Part shown: positions 2,270 through 63,799 of the stretch, piece after piece
How the letters are laid out: each line of letters opens with the position of its first letter
Numbering within the stretch: position 1 is the stretch's first letter
Assembly: GCA_945910395.1 (NCBI GenBank)
Contig: CAMDYX010000002.1
Span: 1-64,000 of the forward strand
Length of the DNA stretch: 64,000 nucleotides
Direction of reading: 5' to 3'
Source: an uncultured Agathobacter sp.
GTDB lineage: Bacteria; Bacillota; Clostridia; Lachnospirales; Lachnospiraceae
Program-made: the position numbers and the translations under genes
Notes under the pieces: model-generated
Seen by the model: the letters and a program-made list of their open reading frames with translations, nothing else
The model's database searches: none
Told to the model about the DNA's origin: nothing

Positions 2270-2310
2270 ATTCTTTCCCCTTTATTTCAACTAATATAGT
2301 CCCATTTCGG

Positions 2311-2582
2311 AATTGTATCATTTCGCCGGTTGATTTTCTTCCAGTACCTAAAATCTATGAAAAAAGCGGCATTTTAAGCGTTTTTTATGGTCGATTGTAT
2401 GTTTTCGCTGGATCACTTTTAGCCTGTACCTAAGAAATTGCAAATATTAGGTATACCGCGAAGTCCACTCCTCAAAATAATACAATTCCCAGGAAAAATC
2501 CGCAATTTGTAGCTGTTTTTCAAGGATTTTAGGTATACGACAGTTCTAGCACCTCAAATCTTGCCAAATTCCATAATTCTGA
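2311..2582. repeat. 272-bp dyad-symmetric repeat (family 2), copy 1
   Basis: Aligns without gaps to 50929-51200 with 12 mismatches by eye. Confidence 0.92.
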
Positions 2583-2627
2583 TCCAGGTATGTCTCAAAT
2601 CAACTTAAGTCTCACTTTTCCAAATAT

Positions 2628-2804
2628 CCCATTTCTGAATTATGTTCCTAAGAATGAATTTTGCTATTTGAATCAGAACGTTTAAAAAGCGTCGGCACTT
2701 AATGAGCAATTTATTGCGAATTTAGTACCGCTACGCTTTTTACAAACGAGAGTGGGTTCTGATTCAAATATGCAAATTCATTCCGATACACAATGCAAAA
2801 TGGG
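2628..2804. repeat. long-hairpin intergenic repeat (family 1), copy B
   Basis: Terminal inverted repeats CCCATTTCTGAATTATGTTCCTAAGAATGAATTTTGC / GCAAATTCATTCCGATACACAATGCAAAATGGGA; internal AAAAAGCGTCGGCACT / AGTACCGCTACGCTTTTT. Confidence 0.92.
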
Positions 2805-12819: not shown

Positions 12820-15800
12820 CTATTCTACTTCCTTTAAATACATGGTTGCCATCATGTGGGATGGCTCCAGCTCTAGTGCCTGATGCAAAAATTCCCTTGC
12901 CTTATCCCTGTTTCCAAGTCCCAGATTTCCCAGGGCCATCAGATAGTAGCAATGGGCTTTGTTTCTGATCGTATAGTCCTCATCAAAGATCATAAACTCC
13001 GGAAGGGAAACAGCAAAATATTCGATTTTCATTTCGTCCCACAGGTGTTTTTCACCATAGTCGATGAGCCGGTAGAATCTGGCTTTACTCTGGGCATCTG
13101 CTCCCAGCTCCTTCTTCGCCAGTCCCTGATACATAATCATATCTGCCGGCTGATCATTATAATACATCATTCCCGCCGGTTCGTCAGTCCCTATTGTGGC
13201 AAGCTCAAAATATGCTTCCGCCTCCCTGGTCTTTCCCTGCATGTTACAAGCAAGTCCCAGATGATAAAAAATGTGATTATCCTTTGTTCCCTCCAGCTTT
13301 CCTTCCCCCAGGTTTTCGGGATACACAAGTGCTTTTTTCAGCAATTCCTCTGCCTTTTGCGGCTCCTGTCGCAAAAGAGCTTCTTTTGCAAGGGAAAGAA
13401 GCGCCAGCACATACTGGGTGGTAACCTTTCCTTCCCCGCCTTCCCAGGCATGAAAATGGCGGCTCATGCAAAGCTCATAGGCTCTTTTATGTTCTCCCAC
13501 CATATTACAAAGGGTAATGTATTCCACAAAGAGATCATCTCGTTTTTTTACCACCTCTTTGTGTAGCTCGTAGTTTAACAGCCGCTCCTTGAAGGTATAA
13601 TTTAACTTCTTATACAGCTGGTCCAGCTCTAAGAATATCCGGGCATCCTCCATGTCCAGCTCAAAGGCCTTTTCCAATTCCTTTTTTGCTGCCTCCTTAT
13701 CGGAAAGCTTGTTGTAATATGCCAGTGCAAGGTTACGATGTACCGTAGCAAATCCCGGATACTGCTCCTTTGCCATTTCCCACAGGGTGATGGAGCGCTT
13801 CCACTGCAGCTTATCAAAATAAAGATTTCCGAGATAGTAAGCCGCCATTCCTGCATCATACCAGTCTACTGCATAGCTTAGTACCGCGATGTCCTCCAGC
13901 TTATTGGGGAAGCAGTAGGAAGAGTCCGTCTGTTCTGCAATACGGATCCATTGCTCTGCCTTAGCTTCCTCTCCCAGCTTATGCAGATAAAAAGCTTTAT
14001 AATAGGCTATAAGCGGTGATTCCTCCTTACAGAGCGTAAGAATTTGAAGCGCCTCCTCGTATGCCCCAAACTCCCCATAATCTCTTGCGATCATCAGGAA
14101 GTTCTGATAAAAATCACGCATCAGATTGCATAAGGCCTCCTTCTTTTGCAAATCCTCCCCAGGCTCCATTTCTCCCGGAGCAGCTTCCAGAAGAATCTGC
14201 TCATAGCGGCTCATAAAATCAAAGGGATCGATTTTTAAGCTCTCGGATACTGCAAGCTTTGCCTCCTGCGTTTTTCCCATCTTTCGCAGAAGATGGGTCC
14301 GAAGTGCTCTTGCCTTGATGTTGTGGGCATTTTTCACAAGAGCCTTCTCCACCATTTCCAAGGCATGGTCATAGTCCTTGTTTTCTGTGTCAATGGCTGC
14401 CAGATAGTAGAAGCTCATCTCCTGCTGCTCGTTGCTCCAGGTTGCCTTAAAGAAAGCGTCATAGGCTTCTTTCTTTTCTCCAAGATAAAAATTTGTAAGC
14501 CCAAGATTATAGTATGCCTCGCTATCGTAAGGATTCGGATTTCGCTTTGTAAGCCGTTCAATGGCTTTTTTAAAATAACTCTTTGCCTCCAAAAAACAGC
14601 CCCGTCTGAAAAGCAGCATTCCATAGGCATTATTGATCCGGATATCCCCCGGGTCCCGCTTTAATCCTTCCAGATAATACGGGTCAGGCAGATACGTGGC
14701 ATGGCGGTACTGCTCGATATGTAAACCGGCCAGATACAGCTCCTCGTTGGTTTGGATGGTTTCTGGGTCCCCAATGGCTTCTGCCGGGTCCGGGAGTTTT
14801 TCAATCTCCTGTTTCTTTTTTGTGTAGGAGACCAGTTCCTTATCCCCCTCCATTACAGAAACGGTAAGCTTCGTCTCATCCTCTATGACTGCTGCAATCT
14901 CATCCTCAAAAATTTCTGTGGGAGAAATCTGCTGCTCTTTTTTGTAGATTTCCTTTCCCTCATAATGCAGAAGAACCTCTGCCTGATGTACGCCGGTGGC
15001 ATATACAATAACCCGGATCGTCTTTTCTGTTACCTCAAGATTTACCGCAGCATCAATGGTTGCATTTTTTACCTGCCCCACCGCCTTGTAGGGCATAAAA
15101 TACTGGTGAAAGGTCTTCTCCTCATAGGGCTTTAACCAGGTAAAATCCGGCTGATTATCCGTATAGACACCGGTCATAAGCTCCACATACGGGCCGTCTT
15201 CATCCGTCAGATTCCGATCCCAGGCTTTTCCGAAATCCCCGTTTCCCCAGGTCCATTGCTTTTTCCCCGGAGAAATGTGATGGTCTGCCACATGAAGGAT
15301 TCCTGCCTCCTTTTGATAATCATAGCCTCCGACAAAATTGTAATCGGACTTTTCCGCCATGTAGCTGGTGGGAACCGGAATGTTTTTATAGCGGGAGATA
15401 TCCACACCCTCGCTGTAATCCTTTTTATAATATACACCGGTGGCAATGGGGAACCTGGACACATCCCGCTTTCCATGGTCCATCACCGCATGAACATCCG
15501 GTGGAAAAATTGACTGGGTATAGTCATTCACCGACACCGCAGGATTTGCCCACCACAGGAAGGTCTGTGGCATCGGGGTACGATTATAAAGCTGTCCGGT
15601 AATCTCGATATATGCTTTTCCCGGATAAAGGGTAAATTTTGTAATCCCTTTTGTTCCGTACATCTGATCCACATCATGGCACATGACGGTTTTACTTCCA
15701 TCCTCATTTTCAAAAAGACTGTAATCCACCGGTAAAAACGTGGTTGGTCTGTGATGCTGCGGCCAGTTAAACTCAATTCCGCCGGAAATCCACGGTCCTG

Positions 15801-16164: not shown

Positions 16165-16340
16165 CCCTTACGGGAAACTGTTCTTGAATGAATTTGCGTA
16201 TTTGCATCAGAACCCACTTTCGTTTGTAAAAAGCGCAGCGGTACTAAATTCGCAATGAATTGCTCATTAAGTGCCGACGCTTTTTAAACGTTCTGATGCA
16301 AATAGCAAAATTCATTCTTAGGAACAGTTTCCCGAAAGGG
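16165..16340. repeat. long-hairpin intergenic repeat (family 1), copy C
   Basis: CCCTTACGGGAAACTGTTCTTGAATGAATTTGC ... GCAAAATTCATTCTTAGGAACAGTTTCCCGAAAGGG with same core. Confidence 0.92.
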
Positions 16341-35321: not shown

Positions 35322-35630
35322 TTATACGTAATTTCCGGCTTGGTTTAGTCTTTGAAAAAGTGTCGTTTACAGATAAACACTTTGTTTTCTCTCTGCTTAT
35401 CTGTAAACTCCGACCCTTATACGTCGCTGGAGAAAGCTTGATTACATATAAGCGCACTGATTTCTTGTCTCTTATATGTCATTTCGAGTTGAAAATGGGC
35501 TTTTAGAAGGAAAAGCTTACATATAACTTCAAAAAAATCTGATAGATTATATGTAATTACAGAAAAAGCACAATTACAAAAGGCCTATGTCTACGGATAA
35601 ATCCATCTATTTCTTTTCGCTTATATGTAA
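35322..35630. repeat. 75-bp-period paired inverted-repeat array, copy b
   Basis: Arms at 35322, 35367/35397, 35442/35472, 35517/35547, 35591/35621; left flank GTTATACGTAATTTCCGGCTTGGTT shared with copy a. Confidence 0.9.
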
Positions 35631-35721
35631 ACTTCTGTTTCTTCGTCTTTATTTGTCATTCGAAACCATTTAAGATGTGAAACCTGACATAAGCCGAGCA
35701 AAACACACTTCATCTACGCAA

Positions 35722-48545: not shown

Positions 48546-48586
48546 TCCAGAAACGCTTGATTTTACAATGTTTAGGAGTTATAAAA

Positions 48587-49603
48587 ATGCCACTTACAAT
48601 TTACGACATCTCAAAAAAGGCAAATGTCTCCATTGCAACGGTTTCCCGTGTTCTAAACGGAAGTGACAATGTCCGGGAATCCACAAGAAAAAAAGTAATG
48701 GACATTATCGAAAAGTATGACTATACTCCAAATGCTTCCGCAAGAGCCATGTCCCTAAGGTCCTTAAAGACCATCGGTATTCTTTGTGCAGATTCTTCCG
48801 ACATCTTTTTGGCAAAAGCAGTGTACTACCTGCAGCAGGAGCTTCAGGCCCGGGGTTATGAATCCTTGTTATGCTGTACCGGATATAATCTGGATTTAAA
48901 GCAGAATTACGTGAACCTGATTCTTTCGAAAAAAGTGGACGGGCTGATTCTGGTTGGTTCAAATTTCATCGGAACTACCGAAGAGGAAAACCAGTACATT
49001 ATCGACGGCTCCGCACAGGTTCCGGTCATGGTTTTAAATGCTTCCTTTGATTATCCAAATGTATACAGCACCTTATGCGATGATTCTTCTTCCATGCTAG
49101 AGGCCACCATCGAGATGGTGGAGTCCGGAATTTCCGATATCCTGTATCTGTACAATTCGGATTCCTATAGCGGAAAGAAAAAGTTAAGCGGATTTGAGAT
49201 GGCAATGAAGAGTAAGCATATTGCAAACTATGAAAATCTCATCGTCCGCATCGACTCTTCCCTTACCCAGATCGAAGATATCGCAAGCCACATAGAAGAA
49301 TTTGCAAAAGCAGGGCATACCTTCCATGGTGTGATTGCCGCCGACGATACCCTTGCCATTGCAGCAATCAAATATGCCCAGCGCAACGGTCGCAGCGTTC
49401 CGGATGATTTATCTGTCATTGGATACAACAATTCCATCCTGACCAGCTGCTGTACCCCGGAGCTTACTTCCATCGACAATCATCTTGAAACCCAGACCAC
49501 CCAGCTGGTAAAAACACTGATCGGAGTCCTCTCCGGTGAGGAAATGCCAAAGAAATCCATTTTCTCAGGAAAGCTTGTAAAAAGAGGAACTACCAATTTT
49601 TAA
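48587..49603 (+). CDS. LacI family transcriptional regulator
   Basis: MPLTIYDISKKANVSIATVSRVLNGSDNVRESTRKKVMDIIEKYDYTPNASARAM; start at 48587 with TAGGAG RBS. Confidence 0.96.
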   Translation: MPLTIYDISKKANVSIATVSRVLNGSDNVRESTRKKVMDIIEKYDYTPNASARAMSLRSLKTIGILCADSSDIFLAKAVYYLQQELQARGYESLLCCTGYNLDLKQNYVNLILSKKVDGLILVGSNFIGTTEEENQYIIDGSAQVPVMVLNASFDYPNVYSTLCDDSSSMLEATIEMVESGISDILYLYNSDSYSGKKKLSGFEMAMKSKHIANYENLIVRIDSSLTQIEDIASHIEEFAKAGHTFHGVIAADDTLAIAAIKYAQRNGRSVPDDLSVIGYNNSILTSCCTPELTSIDNHLETQTTQLVKTLIGVLSGEEMPKKSIFSGKLVKRGTTNF

Positions 49604-49615
49604 AACACAAAAAAT

Positions 49616-49639
49616 AGAGCAGGCCTAAAAGCCTGCTCT
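49616..49639 (-). terminator. rho-independent terminator of the minus-strand GH105 gene
   Basis: AGAGCAGGC-ctaaaa-GCCTGCTCT; on the minus strand followed by ATTTTTTG. Confidence 0.75.
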
Positions 49640-50752
49640 TCGCATTTCTGTATAAGCCAGAAGGAATGGTCCGACACCCTTGGCATCATCCTTTACAATC
49701 GGCTCAGACATATAATAGTCATAGGTTCCCGGCCTGTGTGCCGCGCCTCCAAGTCCGGCCACAAGACAGATTCCATCCAGATGCAAATCTCCCTTTTCAT
49801 CGGTGGTGAGATACTTTTCACAGACACCATCAAATGCTTTCTTTCCGTACTGCGCATATTCTGCCGGAAGATAACCGAGGCGAACCCCCTTAAGAAGGGC
49901 ATAGGCCATGATGGAGCTTCCGCTGGTCTCTAAGTAGTTTCGATCCATTCCACCAAAGTTTACAACCTGATACCACATTCCACTTTCATCCTGATACTTA
50001 AGCATTGCATCCATCAGATCCACAAAGGCATCCTTTAAAAGTGTACAGATTTTTTCTTCTGATTTGTCCGCTTTATCAAGGGTATCCAGCAAAGCCATGG
50101 AATACCACCCCAGTGCACGCAGCCAGAAGTTCTGACTAAGTCCCGTCACCTTATCGCACCAGAACATCTCTCTGGAGGAGTCATAGGCATGGTAGTAAAG
50201 ACCGGTCTTAGGATCTCTCATGGTTTCTATCACATTCTTAAACTGATTGTAGATATCCTCATAGTTCTTCTTATTGTTAAATCTTGTCTCATACTCCATA
50301 TAGAAGGGCTGTCCCATATACATGCCGTCCAGCCAGACCTGATTGGGGTAGATATTCTTATGCCAGAAATTTCCCGCTTCTGTACGGGGCATATCCTTTA
50401 TCTGACTATAAATCAAATCAATTGCTTTTCTGTATTTTTCCTTTCCGGTCAGATCATAGAGCTCGAATAAGGTTTTTCCTGCATTTACATTATCAATGTT
50501 CTTTTCTTCTACCTTGTATCCTTCAATGGAGCCATCCTCAAATACCTTTGCGTCAATAAAGGCATCCGCAAAAGCAAAGTATTTCTCATCCTTTGTGATG
50601 GCATACATCTCCATAATTGCTTTAATCATGCATCCGTCAATGTAATCCCATGTAGATTTTTTACCGGCAAGAATTTTCTCGATATTCCAGACCGGGCGGT
50701 CCGGAGTGCTCTTTTCCATCAATTCTTCCATGTACTTTTCAATTTTATCCAT
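49625..50752 (-). CDS. GH105 unsaturated rhamnogalacturonyl hydrolase (YteR/YesR-like)
   Basis: TWDYIDGCMIKAIMEMYAITKDEKY, NQVWLDGMYMGQPFYMEYE, QNFWLRALGWYSMALLDTLD; start MDKIEK at 50752. Confidence 0.93.
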   Translation of the reverse strand: MDKIEKYMEELMEKSTPDRPVWNIEKILAGKKSTWDYIDGCMIKAIMEMYAITKDEKYFAFADAFIDAKVFEDGSIEGYKVEEKNIDNVNAGKTLFELYDLTGKEKYRKAIDLIYSQIKDMPRTEAGNFWHKNIYPNQVWLDGMYMGQPFYMEYETRFNNKKNYEDIYNQFKNVIETMRDPKTGLYYHAYDSSREMFWCDKVTGLSQNFWLRALGWYSMALLDTLDKADKSEEKICTLLKDAFVDLMDAMLKYQDESGMWYQVVNFGGMDRNYLETSGSSIMAYALLKGVRLGYLPAEYAQYGKKAFDGVCEKYLTTDEKGDLHLDGICLVAGLGGAAHRPGTYDYYMSEPIVKDDAKGVGPFLLAYTEMRRAGF

Positions 50753-50796
50753 ACTTTGCTCCTTTATGTATTTCATATTTTTTATATTTGTACAAC

Positions 50797-50920
50797 TAAA
50801 AATGAATTTTGCTATTCGAATCCAAACTCTTAAAAAGCGTCGGCACTTAATGAGCAATTCATTGCGAATTTAGTACCGCTACGCTTTTTACGAAGCGGGA
50901 GCGGATTCTGCTTCATGCTT
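50797..50920. repeat. long-hairpin intergenic repeat (family 1), copy E; right arm displaced to 51195-51223 by family 2
   Basis: aaatgaattttgctattcgaatcc...aaaaagcgtcggcacttaatgagcaattcattgcgaatttagtaccgctacgctttttac. Confidence 0.88.
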
Positions 50921-50928
50921 GATTGGTA

Positions 50929-51200
50929 AATTGTATTATTTCGCCGGTTGATTTTCTTCCAGTACCTAAAATCTATGAAAAAAGCGGCATTTTAAGCGCT
51001 TTTTATGGTCGATTGTATGTTTTCGCCGGATCAATTTTAGCCTGTACCTAAGAAATTGCAAATATTAGGTATACTGCGAAGTCCACTCCTCAAAATAATA
51101 CAATTCGCATGAAAAATCCGCAATTTGAAGCTGTTTTTCAAGGATTTTAGGTATACGCCAGTTCCGGCACCTCAAATCTTGCCAAATTCCACAATTCTGA
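50929..51200. repeat. 272-bp dyad-symmetric repeat (family 2), copy 2
   Basis: Ungapped match to 2311-2582. Confidence 0.92.
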
Positions 51201-51348
51201 TTCGAATATGTAAATTCATTTTAAAATATAAATCCAAAATGGTGGATATTTTATTCTTTTTTCATTCGATTGAATGGTATAACTATGCTATAATGTCGTT
51301 AAGCATTATATATGCATAGATTTCATTATAGAAAGGATGATTTTTCCT

Positions 51349-52344
51349 ATGAATCAAACTATCTATGTATCAAAAACACGCTCTGGTGCAGATATTTTTC
51401 AAAGTCTAGCAGCAGCGTTGTCTTCTTTAGATAATTCCTCTCAAGAGCTAGTTACAATAGAGATTGCTCCCGGCATCTATCACGAAAAAATTGAAATTCA
51501 CCGAGACAACCTTACCATTGTCGGAACCGGGACAGCGCCGGAGGAAGTGGTGCTTACCTACGCCGATTTTGCTTTCGATGATATGCCCGATGGAAGCAAG
51601 CGCGGAACCTTCCGTTCCTATTCCGTTTTTCTTGATGCAAGCAACGTCACCATGAAGAATCTGACTATCGAAAATGCTTCCGGTGACGAAAATACACACG
51701 GTCAGGCAATTGCCCTCTATGCAGAAGGGGATCATCTATATTTTGAAAACCTTCGATTGATCGGAAGGCAGGACACCCTGTTTACCGGCCCGCTGCCTCC
51801 AAAAGAGCTGCAGCCAAACGGTTTCATCGGTCCAAAGCAATTTGCCCCCCGTATCAATGGGCGCCAGCATTATAAGGACTGCTATATCTGCGGCAACATT
51901 GATTTCATTTTCGGAAGTGCAACCGCTTACTTTGAGCATTGCAGGATAGAATCATTATCTCACAAATCAGAGCAGGATGCAATTCAAGGATACGTTTCTG
52001 CACCATCCACCCCGGAAGGTCAGGAATATGGTTACGTTTTTTATAACTGCAAATTTCTTTCAACAGAATGTGCCGCATCCACCTGTTACCTGGCAAGGCC
52101 CTGGCGAGATTTTGCAAAGGCAGTTTTTATCCGGTGCGAGGTAGGCCCCCATATTCATACGGAGGGTTTCCACGATTGGAACAAGCCAAACGCAAGGGAG
52201 CATGCCTTCTTTGCAGCCTATGGCAACTACCGTCCTTCCGATAGTTCTTCGGAGCCTGAAATATTTTTCCCAAAAGCGCCTTTTGCGAAGAAGCTTTCCA
52301 CAGACGAATCAGCAAAATATAAAAAAGACGAGGTACTCTCATGA
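51349..52344 (+). CDS. pectinesterase (pectin methylesterase, CE8-like), no signal peptide
   Basis: VSKTRSGADIFQSLAAALSSL, ALYAEGDHLYFENLRLIGRQDTLFTG, YKDCYICGNIDFIFGSATAYFEHC, YLARPWRDFAKAVFIRCEVG. Confidence 0.93.
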   Translation: MNQTIYVSKTRSGADIFQSLAAALSSLDNSSQELVTIEIAPGIYHEKIEIHRDNLTIVGTGTAPEEVVLTYADFAFDDMPDGSKRGTFRSYSVFLDASNVTMKNLTIENASGDENTHGQAIALYAEGDHLYFENLRLIGRQDTLFTGPLPPKELQPNGFIGPKQFAPRINGRQHYKDCYICGNIDFIFGSATAYFEHCRIESLSHKSEQDAIQGYVSAPSTPEGQEYGYVFYNCKFLSTECAASTCYLARPWRDFAKAVFIRCEVGPHIHTEGFHDWNKPNAREHAFFAAYGNYRPSDSSSEPEIFFPKAPFAKKLSTDESAKYKKDEVLS

Positions 52345-52940
52345 AAAAGCAAACAACAATCCTTTTACTTGGGCTTTTAGCTCTCTACGCAGTTTTTACC
52401 ATCATAAACGGCCGTCTGGAAAACCATACCGTAAACGATTCCTCCTATCAGAAGGTGGACCTATCCTCCTGCTCCTTAGTGGACCTCGACGATGACCGTG
52501 TTGCCCTGACCATTCCTTCCGAATATGTATATGGCGCCACTCCCTCGGATCTTGAAAAAACAGCAAATGAGCTTGGATATGAGTCCATTATCCTAAATCA
52601 GGACGGAAGCGCAACCTACACCATCACCAAGGAGCAGCATCAGACAATGTTAAAGGATCTTGCAAAAGGAATCAACGAAAAGCTTGCTGCAATTCCCGGT
52701 TCGGACAAATATGACGATATTTCTTCCATAGAAGCAAACGAGGATTTTACCCAGTATAAGGTTTATCTTTCCACCTCCACCGCCGAATTCAACGAATCCA
52801 TGTCCGTGATGCTATTCAAAATGTACGGCACCATGTATAATTGCTTTAACGGTGTCACGGATGAGACCATTGTAATCGAATATTACAATAAAAACGGCGA
52901 CCTGATTGCGTCCTATGATTCAACACCAATAGAAGAATAA
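52341..52940 (+). CDS. hypothetical secreted/membrane-anchored protein, translationally coupled to pectinesterase
   Basis: N-terminal hydrophobic MKKQTTILLLGLLALYAVFTIING; ATGA overlap (52341-52344) with pectinesterase stop. Confidence 0.75.
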   Translation: MKKQTTILLLGLLALYAVFTIINGRLENHTVNDSSYQKVDLSSCSLVDLDDDRVALTIPSEYVYGATPSDLEKTANELGYESIILNQDGSATYTITKEQHQTMLKDLAKGINEKLAAIPGSDKYDDISSIEANEDFTQYKVYLSTSTAEFNESMSVMLFKMYGTMYNCFNGVTDETIVIEYYNKNGDLIASYDSTPIEE

Positions 52941-53761
52941 ATGTTTAAAATGTGGTCCTTGGAAAATACTGCGGTTTCCGGTGTGGTATTTTCCAGGGTT
53001 GCATGGATATAGGGCTTTCTGTTCTTGATGAAGGAAAGAATCTGTTCATAGTTCATCTCTCCTTTTCCGCATCCAACGGAAACCAGCTTTCCGTCCTCCA
53101 CAACAAAATCCTTCAAGTGAACCACTGCAATATCGTCCCCGAGAGCTTCGATGGTTTCTTTAAAAATTTCTTCCCGTTTTTCATAATTACTGATATCCAA
53201 AAGATTTACCGGATCGAAAATAATCTGAAGATTCGGTGAGCCAATCTCATCCAAAACCCTTCTTGCACGCTTTGAATTGCAGACAATATGCTTGTAAACC
53301 GGCTCAATTGCCATGATTACTCCCATTTTTTCTGCATATTCCACAACAGGACGAAGATTTCTGATAAAAATCTCAAGAGCCTCCTCGGAATGATTTCTCT
53401 CCTCAAAGGTATAGGCTTCGTTTACTGCGCCGGTTTCGGTTCCCACAACTCCCACATCCAGAAGAGATGCAAAACGGATATGTGCCATATAGCGTTTTGT
53501 AATCTTCTTCAAGCTCTCCGGATTTGGATTTGCCAGATTCAGATAGCAGCCTAACACAGCCACATCCAGTTCATTCTTTTCAAACAGATGCTTTAAGTAA
53601 AGTGCCAGGCCTGGTGTAAGGGCACCGTCATCCGTGGCATACTCACTGATTACTTTTCCCAGCGCCAGATGTCCGCAGGTAAATCCCTGTTCATGGGCAA
53701 TGGCAAGACGCTCCTCAAGGGGAGCCTTTTTGATATCATGTAAGCGAATTCCAATCTGCAT
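52913..53761 (-). CDS. sugar phosphate isomerase/epimerase
   Basis: MQIGIRLHDIKKAPLEERLAIAHEQGFTCGHLAL, MAIEPVYKHI, IIFDPVNLLD, VVHLKDFVVEDGKLVSVGCGKGEMNY. Confidence 0.87.
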   Translation of the reverse strand: MQIGIRLHDIKKAPLEERLAIAHEQGFTCGHLALGKVISEYATDDGALTPGLALYLKHLFEKNELDVAVLGCYLNLANPNPESLKKITKRYMAHIRFASLLDVGVVGTETGAVNEAYTFEERNHSEEALEIFIRNLRPVVEYAEKMGVIMAIEPVYKHIVCNSKRARRVLDEIGSPNLQIIFDPVNLLDISNYEKREEIFKETIEALGDDIAVVHLKDFVVEDGKLVSVGCGKGEMNYEQILSFIKNRKPYIHATLENTTPETAVFSKDHILNIYSSIGVES

Positions 53762-53787: not shown

Positions 53788-53892
53788 TTTAATCCCATTT
53801 CAAAATTGTGTTCCCGAATGAATTTGCGTATTTGAATCAGAACGTTTAAATAGCAAAGTTCATTCTCAGGAACACAATTCCAAAAAGGGATT
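53788..53892. repeat. internally deleted family 1 element, copy F
   Basis: cccatttcaaaattgtgttcccgaatgaatttgcgtatttgaatcagaacgtttaaatagcaaagttcattctcaggaacacaattccaaaaaggga; core hairpin missing. Confidence 0.85.
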
Positions 53893-60410: not shown

Positions 60411-60719
60411 TTATACGTAATTTCTGGCTTGGTTCATTCTCCGAAAAAAGAGGGTTACAGATAAGCACTTTGTTTTCTCCCTGCTTATATGTAAATTACA
60501 GCTCAAATGCATCGCAGGAGAGAGGGTAATTACAGATAAGCGGATTAATTTCTAGCCTCTTATATGTAATTTCAAGTAGAATAATGCTTTTCATGAGGTC
60601 AAGGTTACGTATAACTTCAAAAAATTCTGACTGTTTATATGTAAATGCAGGAAAAAACATCTTCTCAAAGGAACGATAGCTACAGATAAATTCATTAATT
60701 TCGCCTCTCTTATATGTAA
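60411..60719. repeat. 75-bp-period paired inverted-repeat array, copy a
   Basis: Arms at 60411, 60455/60485, 60530/60560, 60605/60635, 60680/60710; conserved tail GTTTGTACACGAAAGAGTATGAAAAATCG from ~60742. Confidence 0.92.
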
Positions 60720-60774
60720 TCCCTTGATTTTTATCTTTACCGTTTGTACACGAAAGAGTATGAAAAATCGTTTT

Positions 60775-63565: not shown

Positions 63566-63799
63566 TTACATATAAACTATTAGAAAGCGTAAGCCTCTTG
63601 ATAAGTGAAGTTTACATATAAAACTCTTATTATCTCAGAACCTATATGTAATCATAAGCTAAAAAAATTTCTAAAAAGACAGATGCTACATATAATTTAA
63701 TGAAATTCTGATAGTATATATGTAATTGCCCCAAAAACACATTCGAAAAAGGCCGATAATTACAGATAAATCCGTCTATTCCTCTTCGTGTATATGTAA
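63566..63799. repeat. 75-bp-period paired inverted-repeat array, copy c (degenerate left end)
   Basis: Arms at 63566, 63612/63642, 63686/63716, 63760/63790; tail GTTTGCACACGAAAGAGTTTGATAAATT at 63858. Confidence 0.85.

What the first reader, a model, noticed from the sequence alone, without database searches (positions are those of the whole stretch)
2311..2582. 272-bp repeat with four TACCTAA sites in exact dyad symmetry
TACCTAA occurs at 2345 and 2427, and TTAGGTA at 2447-2453 and 2525-2531 (within the outer GATTTTAGGTA 2525-2535). Outer-to-inner distance is 82 bp on both sides, centred near 2440. The outer pair is an 11-bp perfect inverted repeat (TACCTAAAATC / GATTTTAGGTA). A further hairpin AAAAAGCG...CGTTTTTT lies at about 2360-2388. 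There is no ORF. The architecture resembles a regulatory-protein or recombinase target, or a structured RNA.
Basis: seen in the sequence. Interest (0 to 1): 0.75.

Follow-up and report, generated by a model that had tools for sequence, protein, structure and literature searches.

The report
Dispersed helically phased four-site DNA element
The repeat is one of about 65 scattered copies of a roughly 263-base DNA element in which four identical short sites sit on the same face of the double helix, and this pattern is preserved while the bases between change, which suggests that an unknown protein bends or wraps the DNA there.

Summary
The repeat is not one of two copies. About 40 BLAST-detectable copies and about 65 profile-detectable loci lie in this 3.1-Mb genome. 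None was found in the relatives searched, in GTDB contigs, or in phage, plasmid or viral collections. About 33 close copies, both window copies included, are tied to a separate 180-bp MITE whose ends flank many of them. The rest are diverged copies, mostly without MITE ends. Intact copies keep one architecture: TACCTAA-82-TACCTAA-20/21-TTAGGTA-82-TTAGGTA. In 32 close copies the heptamers show 3 changes where about 45 are expected, almost none on terminal branches, so selection acts on copies in place. Arms do not co-vary, so a conserved RNA hairpin is not supported. A/T content is periodic at 10.2-10.3 bp in 13 of 13 diverged copies tested. The heptamers then fall at 0, 8, 10 and 18 helical turns, on one face. 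Best explanation: a DNA-level nucleoprotein element, bent or wrapped by an unidentified sequence-specific protein. Protein and purpose are inferred, not shown. A second family in the window has four 38-bp palindromes at 75-bp spacing.

The parts
2309..2571 (.). Complete four-module element (dyad centre 2440); window copy 1
   Evidence: Profile R1 match 2308-2573, E 1.8e-63; strongest 10.2-bp A/T periodicity in the 64-kb window
2345..2351 (+). Heptamer 1 TACCTAA (outer left)
   Evidence: invariant in 32 of 32 copies
2427..2433 (+). Heptamer 2 TACCTAA (inner left), 82 bp = 8.0 turns from heptamer 1
2447..2453 (-). Heptamer 3 TTAGGTA (inner right), 20 bp = 2.0 turns from heptamer 2
   Evidence: first base C in 5 of 32 copies
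2529..2535 (-). Heptamer 4 TTAGGTA (outer right), 82 bp from heptamer 3
   Evidence: invariant in 32 of 32 copies
2311..2351 (+). Module 1: ATTGTAT-box to TACCTAA, about 40 bp
   Evidence: Consensus of diverged half-elements
2393..2433 (+). Module 2: ATTGTAT-box to TACCTAA
2447..2487 (-). Module 3 (mirror): TTAGGTA to ATACAAT-box
2529..2571 (-). Module 4 (mirror): TTAGGTA to degenerate box CCAAATT
2300..2311 (+). Fragment resembling the left MITE terminal repeat (TCCCATTTCGG) abutting module 1 in this copy
2624..2804 (+). E2, about 180-bp MITE copy next to the element (terminal repeats TCCC(A/T)TTTCGGAATTGTGTTCC; 8-9 bp target duplication as a family)
50927..51189 (.). Window copy 2 of the element (profile match 50925-51191)
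   Evidence: second strongest 10.2-bp periodicity in the window

Best explanation
The repeat is a DNA element of about 263 bp (about 26 helical turns) that acts as the scaffold of a nucleoprotein complex. Four 40-bp modules, each an ATTGTAT box and a TACCTAA box, are arranged >> << so that all four heptamers lie on one face of the helix (0, 8, 10 and 18 turns). A/T-rich stretches recur every 10.2-10.3 bp on the opposite face. An unidentified sequence-specific protein, probably acting as a multimer, binds the four modules and the DNA is bent or wrapped around it. About 65 copies are dispersed between genes. About 33 near-identical copies, including both in the window, belong to a recent expansion associated with a MITE (E2) whose ends flank many of them. 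Shown: architecture, copy number, flanking MITE ends, in-place conservation, phasing, lack of arm covariation. Inferred: that a protein binds and wraps it, that the MITE moved it, and its purpose (local chromosome architecture or topology, or silencing of the loci it occupies).
For: In 32 close copies the four heptamers show 1 terminal-branch and 2 internal changes over 28 columns, against 33.5 and 11.4 expected; no random set of four 7-column windows of 20000 is as conserved. The same architecture occurs in copies that have otherwise diverged. Spacing is fixed at 82 (71 cases, against 2 at 81 and 1 at 80). Each of 13 diverged copies is periodic in A/T at 10.3 bp: mean power 11.5 against 0.95 in 354 flanking windows, Mann-Whitney P 5e-10; heptamer centres at 0, 8.0, 10.0, 18.0 turns and A/T maxima half a turn away. 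Phasing persists with heptamers masked and in weakly conserved columns alone (P 0.0095); displaced windows and E2 lack it. In an unbiased scan the two window copies are the two most periodic 263-bp segments of 64 kb. Arms are no more alike within an element than between elements (0.43 vs 0.45), so pairing is not what is preserved. No single functional class of neighbouring gene.
Against: No binding protein was identified and no binding data exist. The diverged copies share ancestry, so their phasing is not fully independent. Most diverged copies were first found by exact heptamers or by a profile built from such copies, so heptamer invariance among them is partly ascertained; the 32 BLAST-found copies do not have this problem. 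Some loci carry only one or two modules, so loss is tolerated at places. Phased A/T could reflect intrinsic curvature without a protein.
Confidence: 0.62

Rival explanations
1. Miniature transposon in which each end carries two recombinase-binding sites (as in IR/DR or Tn7/Mu-like ends) and the interior is deleted; the heptamers are transposase sites.
For: The >> << layout with two same-direction modules per half is what two such ends joined head to head would look like; the recent copies lie within MITE ends.
Against: The mobile ends of the recent copies belong to the unrelated E2 MITE (8-9 bp duplication). Thirteen old copies show no target duplication. Partial copies on shared contigs are not arranged as ends of a longer element (coordinates). 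Sites needed only for transposition should decay in resident copies, but terminal-branch changes are almost absent.
Confidence: 0.18
2. Structured RNA: transcripts fold into a long hairpin recognised by a protein or nuclease.
For: The + strand of the window copy folds better than shuffles (z -3.2); inner palindromes after the enolase-like and MtlD-like genes look like terminators.
Against: 50 predicted pairs give a covariation term of only -0.13 and 3 pairs with two-sided change; no arm-to-arm covariation; no Rfam match; spacing and A/T phasing follow the DNA helix. The orientation bias of close copies (19:2) is shared by E2 (19:5) and is not seen in old copies.
Confidence: 0.1
3. Strong DNA gyrase sites: phased arms wrap around the enzyme, and the dyad centre is cut.
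For: The gyrase motif of E. coli has A/T-G/C phasing in arms on both sides of a central cleavage region and gyrase cuts in BIME-2 repeats (PMC6379681).
Against: That motif is about 130 bp, degenerate, 10.75-bp periodic, with a non-periodic centre; this element is twice as long, 10.2-10.3-bp periodic, and has invariant heptamers.
Confidence: 0.12
4. Ordinary neutrally decaying MITE without function; conservation is a by-product of recent spread or gene conversion.
For: About 33 copies are recent and MITE-associated; E2 also shows conserved and variable stretches.
Against: Near-zero change in heptamers next to variable columns is not expected from young age or conversion tracts; the same architecture persists in copies whose halves are 56% alike on average.
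Confidence: 0.06

Closest known systems
BIME/REP elements of E. coli (IHF- and gyrase-bound types)
   Same: High-copy intergenic palindromic repeats with binding sites for chromosome proteins
   Different: REPs are 20-40 bp palindromes, many with GTAG/CGTC tags (abstract and title of PMC3733652); here four 40-bp modules at fixed helical spacing over about 263 bp and no hairpin constraint
Correia elements of Neisseria
   Same: MITE-type intergenic repeats, some with a DNA-bending-protein (IHF) site (PMC10969869)
   Different: Here the conserved part is separable from the MITE, has four sites, and shows in-place conservation
DNA gyrase binding motif / strong gyrase sites
   Same: Dyad-symmetric, helically phased A/T that wraps DNA
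   Different: About 130 bp, degenerate, 10.75-bp period (PMC6379681) versus about 263 bp, invariant heptamers, 10.2-10.3-bp period
Second family in the same window ('E3')
   Same: Four sites at fixed spacing (75 bp), dispersed, not found in the 39 relatives searched
   Different: Each site is a 38-bp palindrome TAC(A/G)(G/T)ATAA-N20-TTAT(A/C)(T/C)GTA; period nearer 10.6-10.7

Membership tests
MITE (E2-type) | Terminal inverted repeats and target-site duplication | tested here: met
   Met for E2 (8-9 bp duplication). E2 ends flank many recent copies of the element; only 9 copies had both ends recognisable and their duplication signal is weak (0.54 vs 0.42)
MITE (E2-type) | Same features in the old, diverged copies of the four-site element | tested here: not met
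   No E2 ends on most; no duplication in 13 copies
REP/BIME | 20-40 bp hairpin with maintained stem pairing | tested here: not met
   No pairing covariation; module size and spacing differ
Rfam RNA families | Match above gathering score | tested here: not met
   0 matches in eight copies with flanks
Gyrase strong site | About 130-bp motif, about 10.75-bp periodic arms, non-periodic centre; cleavage in vivo | tested here: inconclusive
   Phasing present, but period 10.2-10.3 and about 263 bp; cleavage not testable with these tools
IHF/HU-type bound repeat | Protein binds and bends the element | not testable with these tools
   Needs a binding assay
IR/DR or Tn7-like transposon end | Transposase gene between such ends | tested here: inconclusive
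   No suitably arranged pair of half-elements among profile hits on shared contigs; assembly is 127 contigs, 89% complete

The most novel reading that the evidence does not exclude
A bacterium uses dispersed, nucleosome-like DNA scaffolds: 26-turn elements with four identical sites on one helix face, maintained in place at dozens of loci, recognised by an unknown wrapping protein, and a second family (four palindromes, 75-bp spacing) built on the same logic for another protein.
Probability: 0.35. Interest if true: 0.88.

Novelty: new variant of a known kind. Interest (0 to 1): 0.72.

Why it matters
Most bacterial dispersed repeats are studied as selfish hairpins. Here a repeat shows sequence constraint in resident copies and geometry that matches whole helical turns over about 263 bp. 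If a dedicated protein binds it, this would be a sequence-defined chromosome-architecture system confined, as far as searched, to one species, and would make the question of how such systems arise and spread (here apparently with the help of a MITE) directly testable.

Tried and rejected
Long RNA hairpin with compensatory changes: rejected. Local A5/T5 hairpin between modules 1 and 2: T5 is lost or replaced in several diverged copies, so not a defining feature. Orientation relative to genes as evidence for RNA: close copies are biased 19:2 but E2 shows the same bias and old copies do not. Regulon of one gene class: 40 neighbours of old copies, 72 Pfam families, none in more than two proteins. 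Presence elsewhere: no BLAST match in 59 relatives; profile best E 0.0017 in 59 other same-genus genomes, background level; the one exact hit in GTDB contigs is a tandem-repeat sequence in a Treponema MAG; no match in viral contigs, phages or plasmids. Literature: the papers listed for TACCTAA look unrelated. The third most periodic segment of the window (13973-14235) is coding, so periodicity alone does not define the element.

Full report
Observation. The four heptamers are where described, except that the last lies at 2529-2535. Spacing is 82 bp on both sides of a centre at 2440.

Copies. Against its own genome (G000, 3.14 Mb, 127 contigs, 89% complete) the core gives about 40 places. A sequence-only profile from 20 members finds about 65 loci down to E about 1e-5 or weaker, some partial (the count merges the two strands by hand). 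Relatives give background only. GTDB contigs, viral contigs, phages and plasmids give nothing relevant.

Two layers. About 33 copies are 82-100% like the window copy in the left arm. Many of them carry, outside the element, the terminal repeats of E2, a 180-bp MITE present in at least 40 copies with an 8-9 bp A/T-rich duplication. In nine copies both ends could be recognised; several of these composites are 371 bp long and the duplication signal is weak. Some copies are instead flanked by larger pieces of E2. The remaining copies are strongly diverged and mostly lack E2 ends. The simplest reading is that a pre-existing element was captured by the MITE and spread with it; this is inferred.

Architecture. 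Pattern searches recover TACCTAA-75-TACCTAA about 80 times. In the fetched loci, same-strand spacing is 82 in 71 cases, 81 in 2, 80 in 1; the inner pair is 20 or 21 bp apart. Diverged half-elements average 56% identity and share an ATTGTAT box 34 bp before TACCTAA, TTT runs between, a GAAAAA tract after the outer heptamer, and TACCTAA itself. The layout is module 1 >, module 2 >, < module 3, < module 4.

Selection in place. On a tree of 32 close copies, changes average 1.19 terminal and 0.41 internal per column. The 28 heptamer columns have 1 and 2 changes against 33.5 and 11.4 expected. None of 20000 random sets of four 7-column windows is as conserved. Terminal-branch changes arise after the last duplication sampled, so resident copies appear to be under constraint. 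These copies were found by whole-length similarity, not by heptamer.

DNA, not RNA. Alifold of the 32 copies gives a covariation term of -0.13 and three pairs with two-sided change. Among ten diverged elements, a left arm is no more complementary to its own right arm than to those of others (0.425 vs 0.449). Rfam gives nothing. Close copies are oriented relative to tandem genes (19:2), but E2 shows the same bias (19:5) and old copies do not, so this belongs to the MITE. ORF calls used for this are mechanical.

Helical phasing. The mean A/T profile of 28 half-elements peaks at 10.4 bp (power 14.2; column-shuffle and block-shuffle P from below 0.0005 to 0.004). It holds with heptamers masked (14.4) and in the 65 weakly conserved columns alone (P 0.0095). 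Displaced windows at the same loci give 1-3.6, E2 2.6. Whole elements peak at 10.24-10.30 bp (power 24-29 against a null maximum of 16-18). At that period the heptamer centres fall at 0, 8.0, 10.0 and 18.0 turns, with A/T maxima half a turn away. Taken singly, 13 of 13 diverged copies exceed the 95th percentile of 354 flanking windows (mean 11.5 vs 0.95, P 5e-10). In an unbiased scan of the window the two copies rank first and second (12.1, 11.8), the third peak being coding.

Interpretation. Four identical sites on one face plus phased A/T on the other is the expected sequence signature of DNA bent or wrapped around a protein assembly (general knowledge of nucleosome and gyrase wrapping; for gyrase PMC6379681). 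The protein and purpose are unknown. Neighbouring genes share no function, which argues against a dedicated regulon and leaves local topology, architecture or silencing as the more likely roles; this is inference.

Limits. The diverged copies are related, so they are not fully independent tests. Most were first found through exact heptamers or a profile built from such copies. The organism could not be named with the tools; gene content looks like a polysaccharide-degrading Firmicute (inference). No binding or transcript data were available.

Noticed in passing
window 35367-35632, 60455-60720, about 63567-63790: Second dispersed family: four 38-bp palindromes TAC(A/G)(G/T)ATAA-N20-TTAT(A/C)(T/C)GTA at 75-bp (sometimes 74) spacing; about a dozen loci in this genome, none in 39 relatives; A/T periodicity near 10.6-10.7 bp.
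   Followed up: partly
window 2624-2804; related pieces at 1-98, 16186-16340, 50796-50894, 53805-53854: E2, a 180-bp MITE present in at least 40 copies genome-wide, 8-9 bp duplication; its terminal repeats seem to change in a coordinated way on both sides in some copies (by eye); its core is more conserved than its ends. No autonomous partner was looked for.
   Followed up: partly
L124:1480-1535 and L121:1460-1515: Downstream of an enolase gene and of an MtlD-like gene the inner heptamer pair is extended into a long hairpin resembling an intrinsic terminator.
   Followed up: no
L003, L057, L064 left flanks: Some diverged copies have extra upstream units resembling ATTGTAT..CGCCGGTTGATT about 28-30 bp apart before module 1, as if part of a module had been duplicated.
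   Followed up: no
window 48557-53761: The second copy lies between genes that look like carbohydrate-utilisation genes (LacI-type regulator, glycoside-hydrolase-like, pectin-esterase-like), similar to the GH88 and heparinase-II/III neighbours of copy 1 (names for copy 2 are by eye).
   Followed up: no
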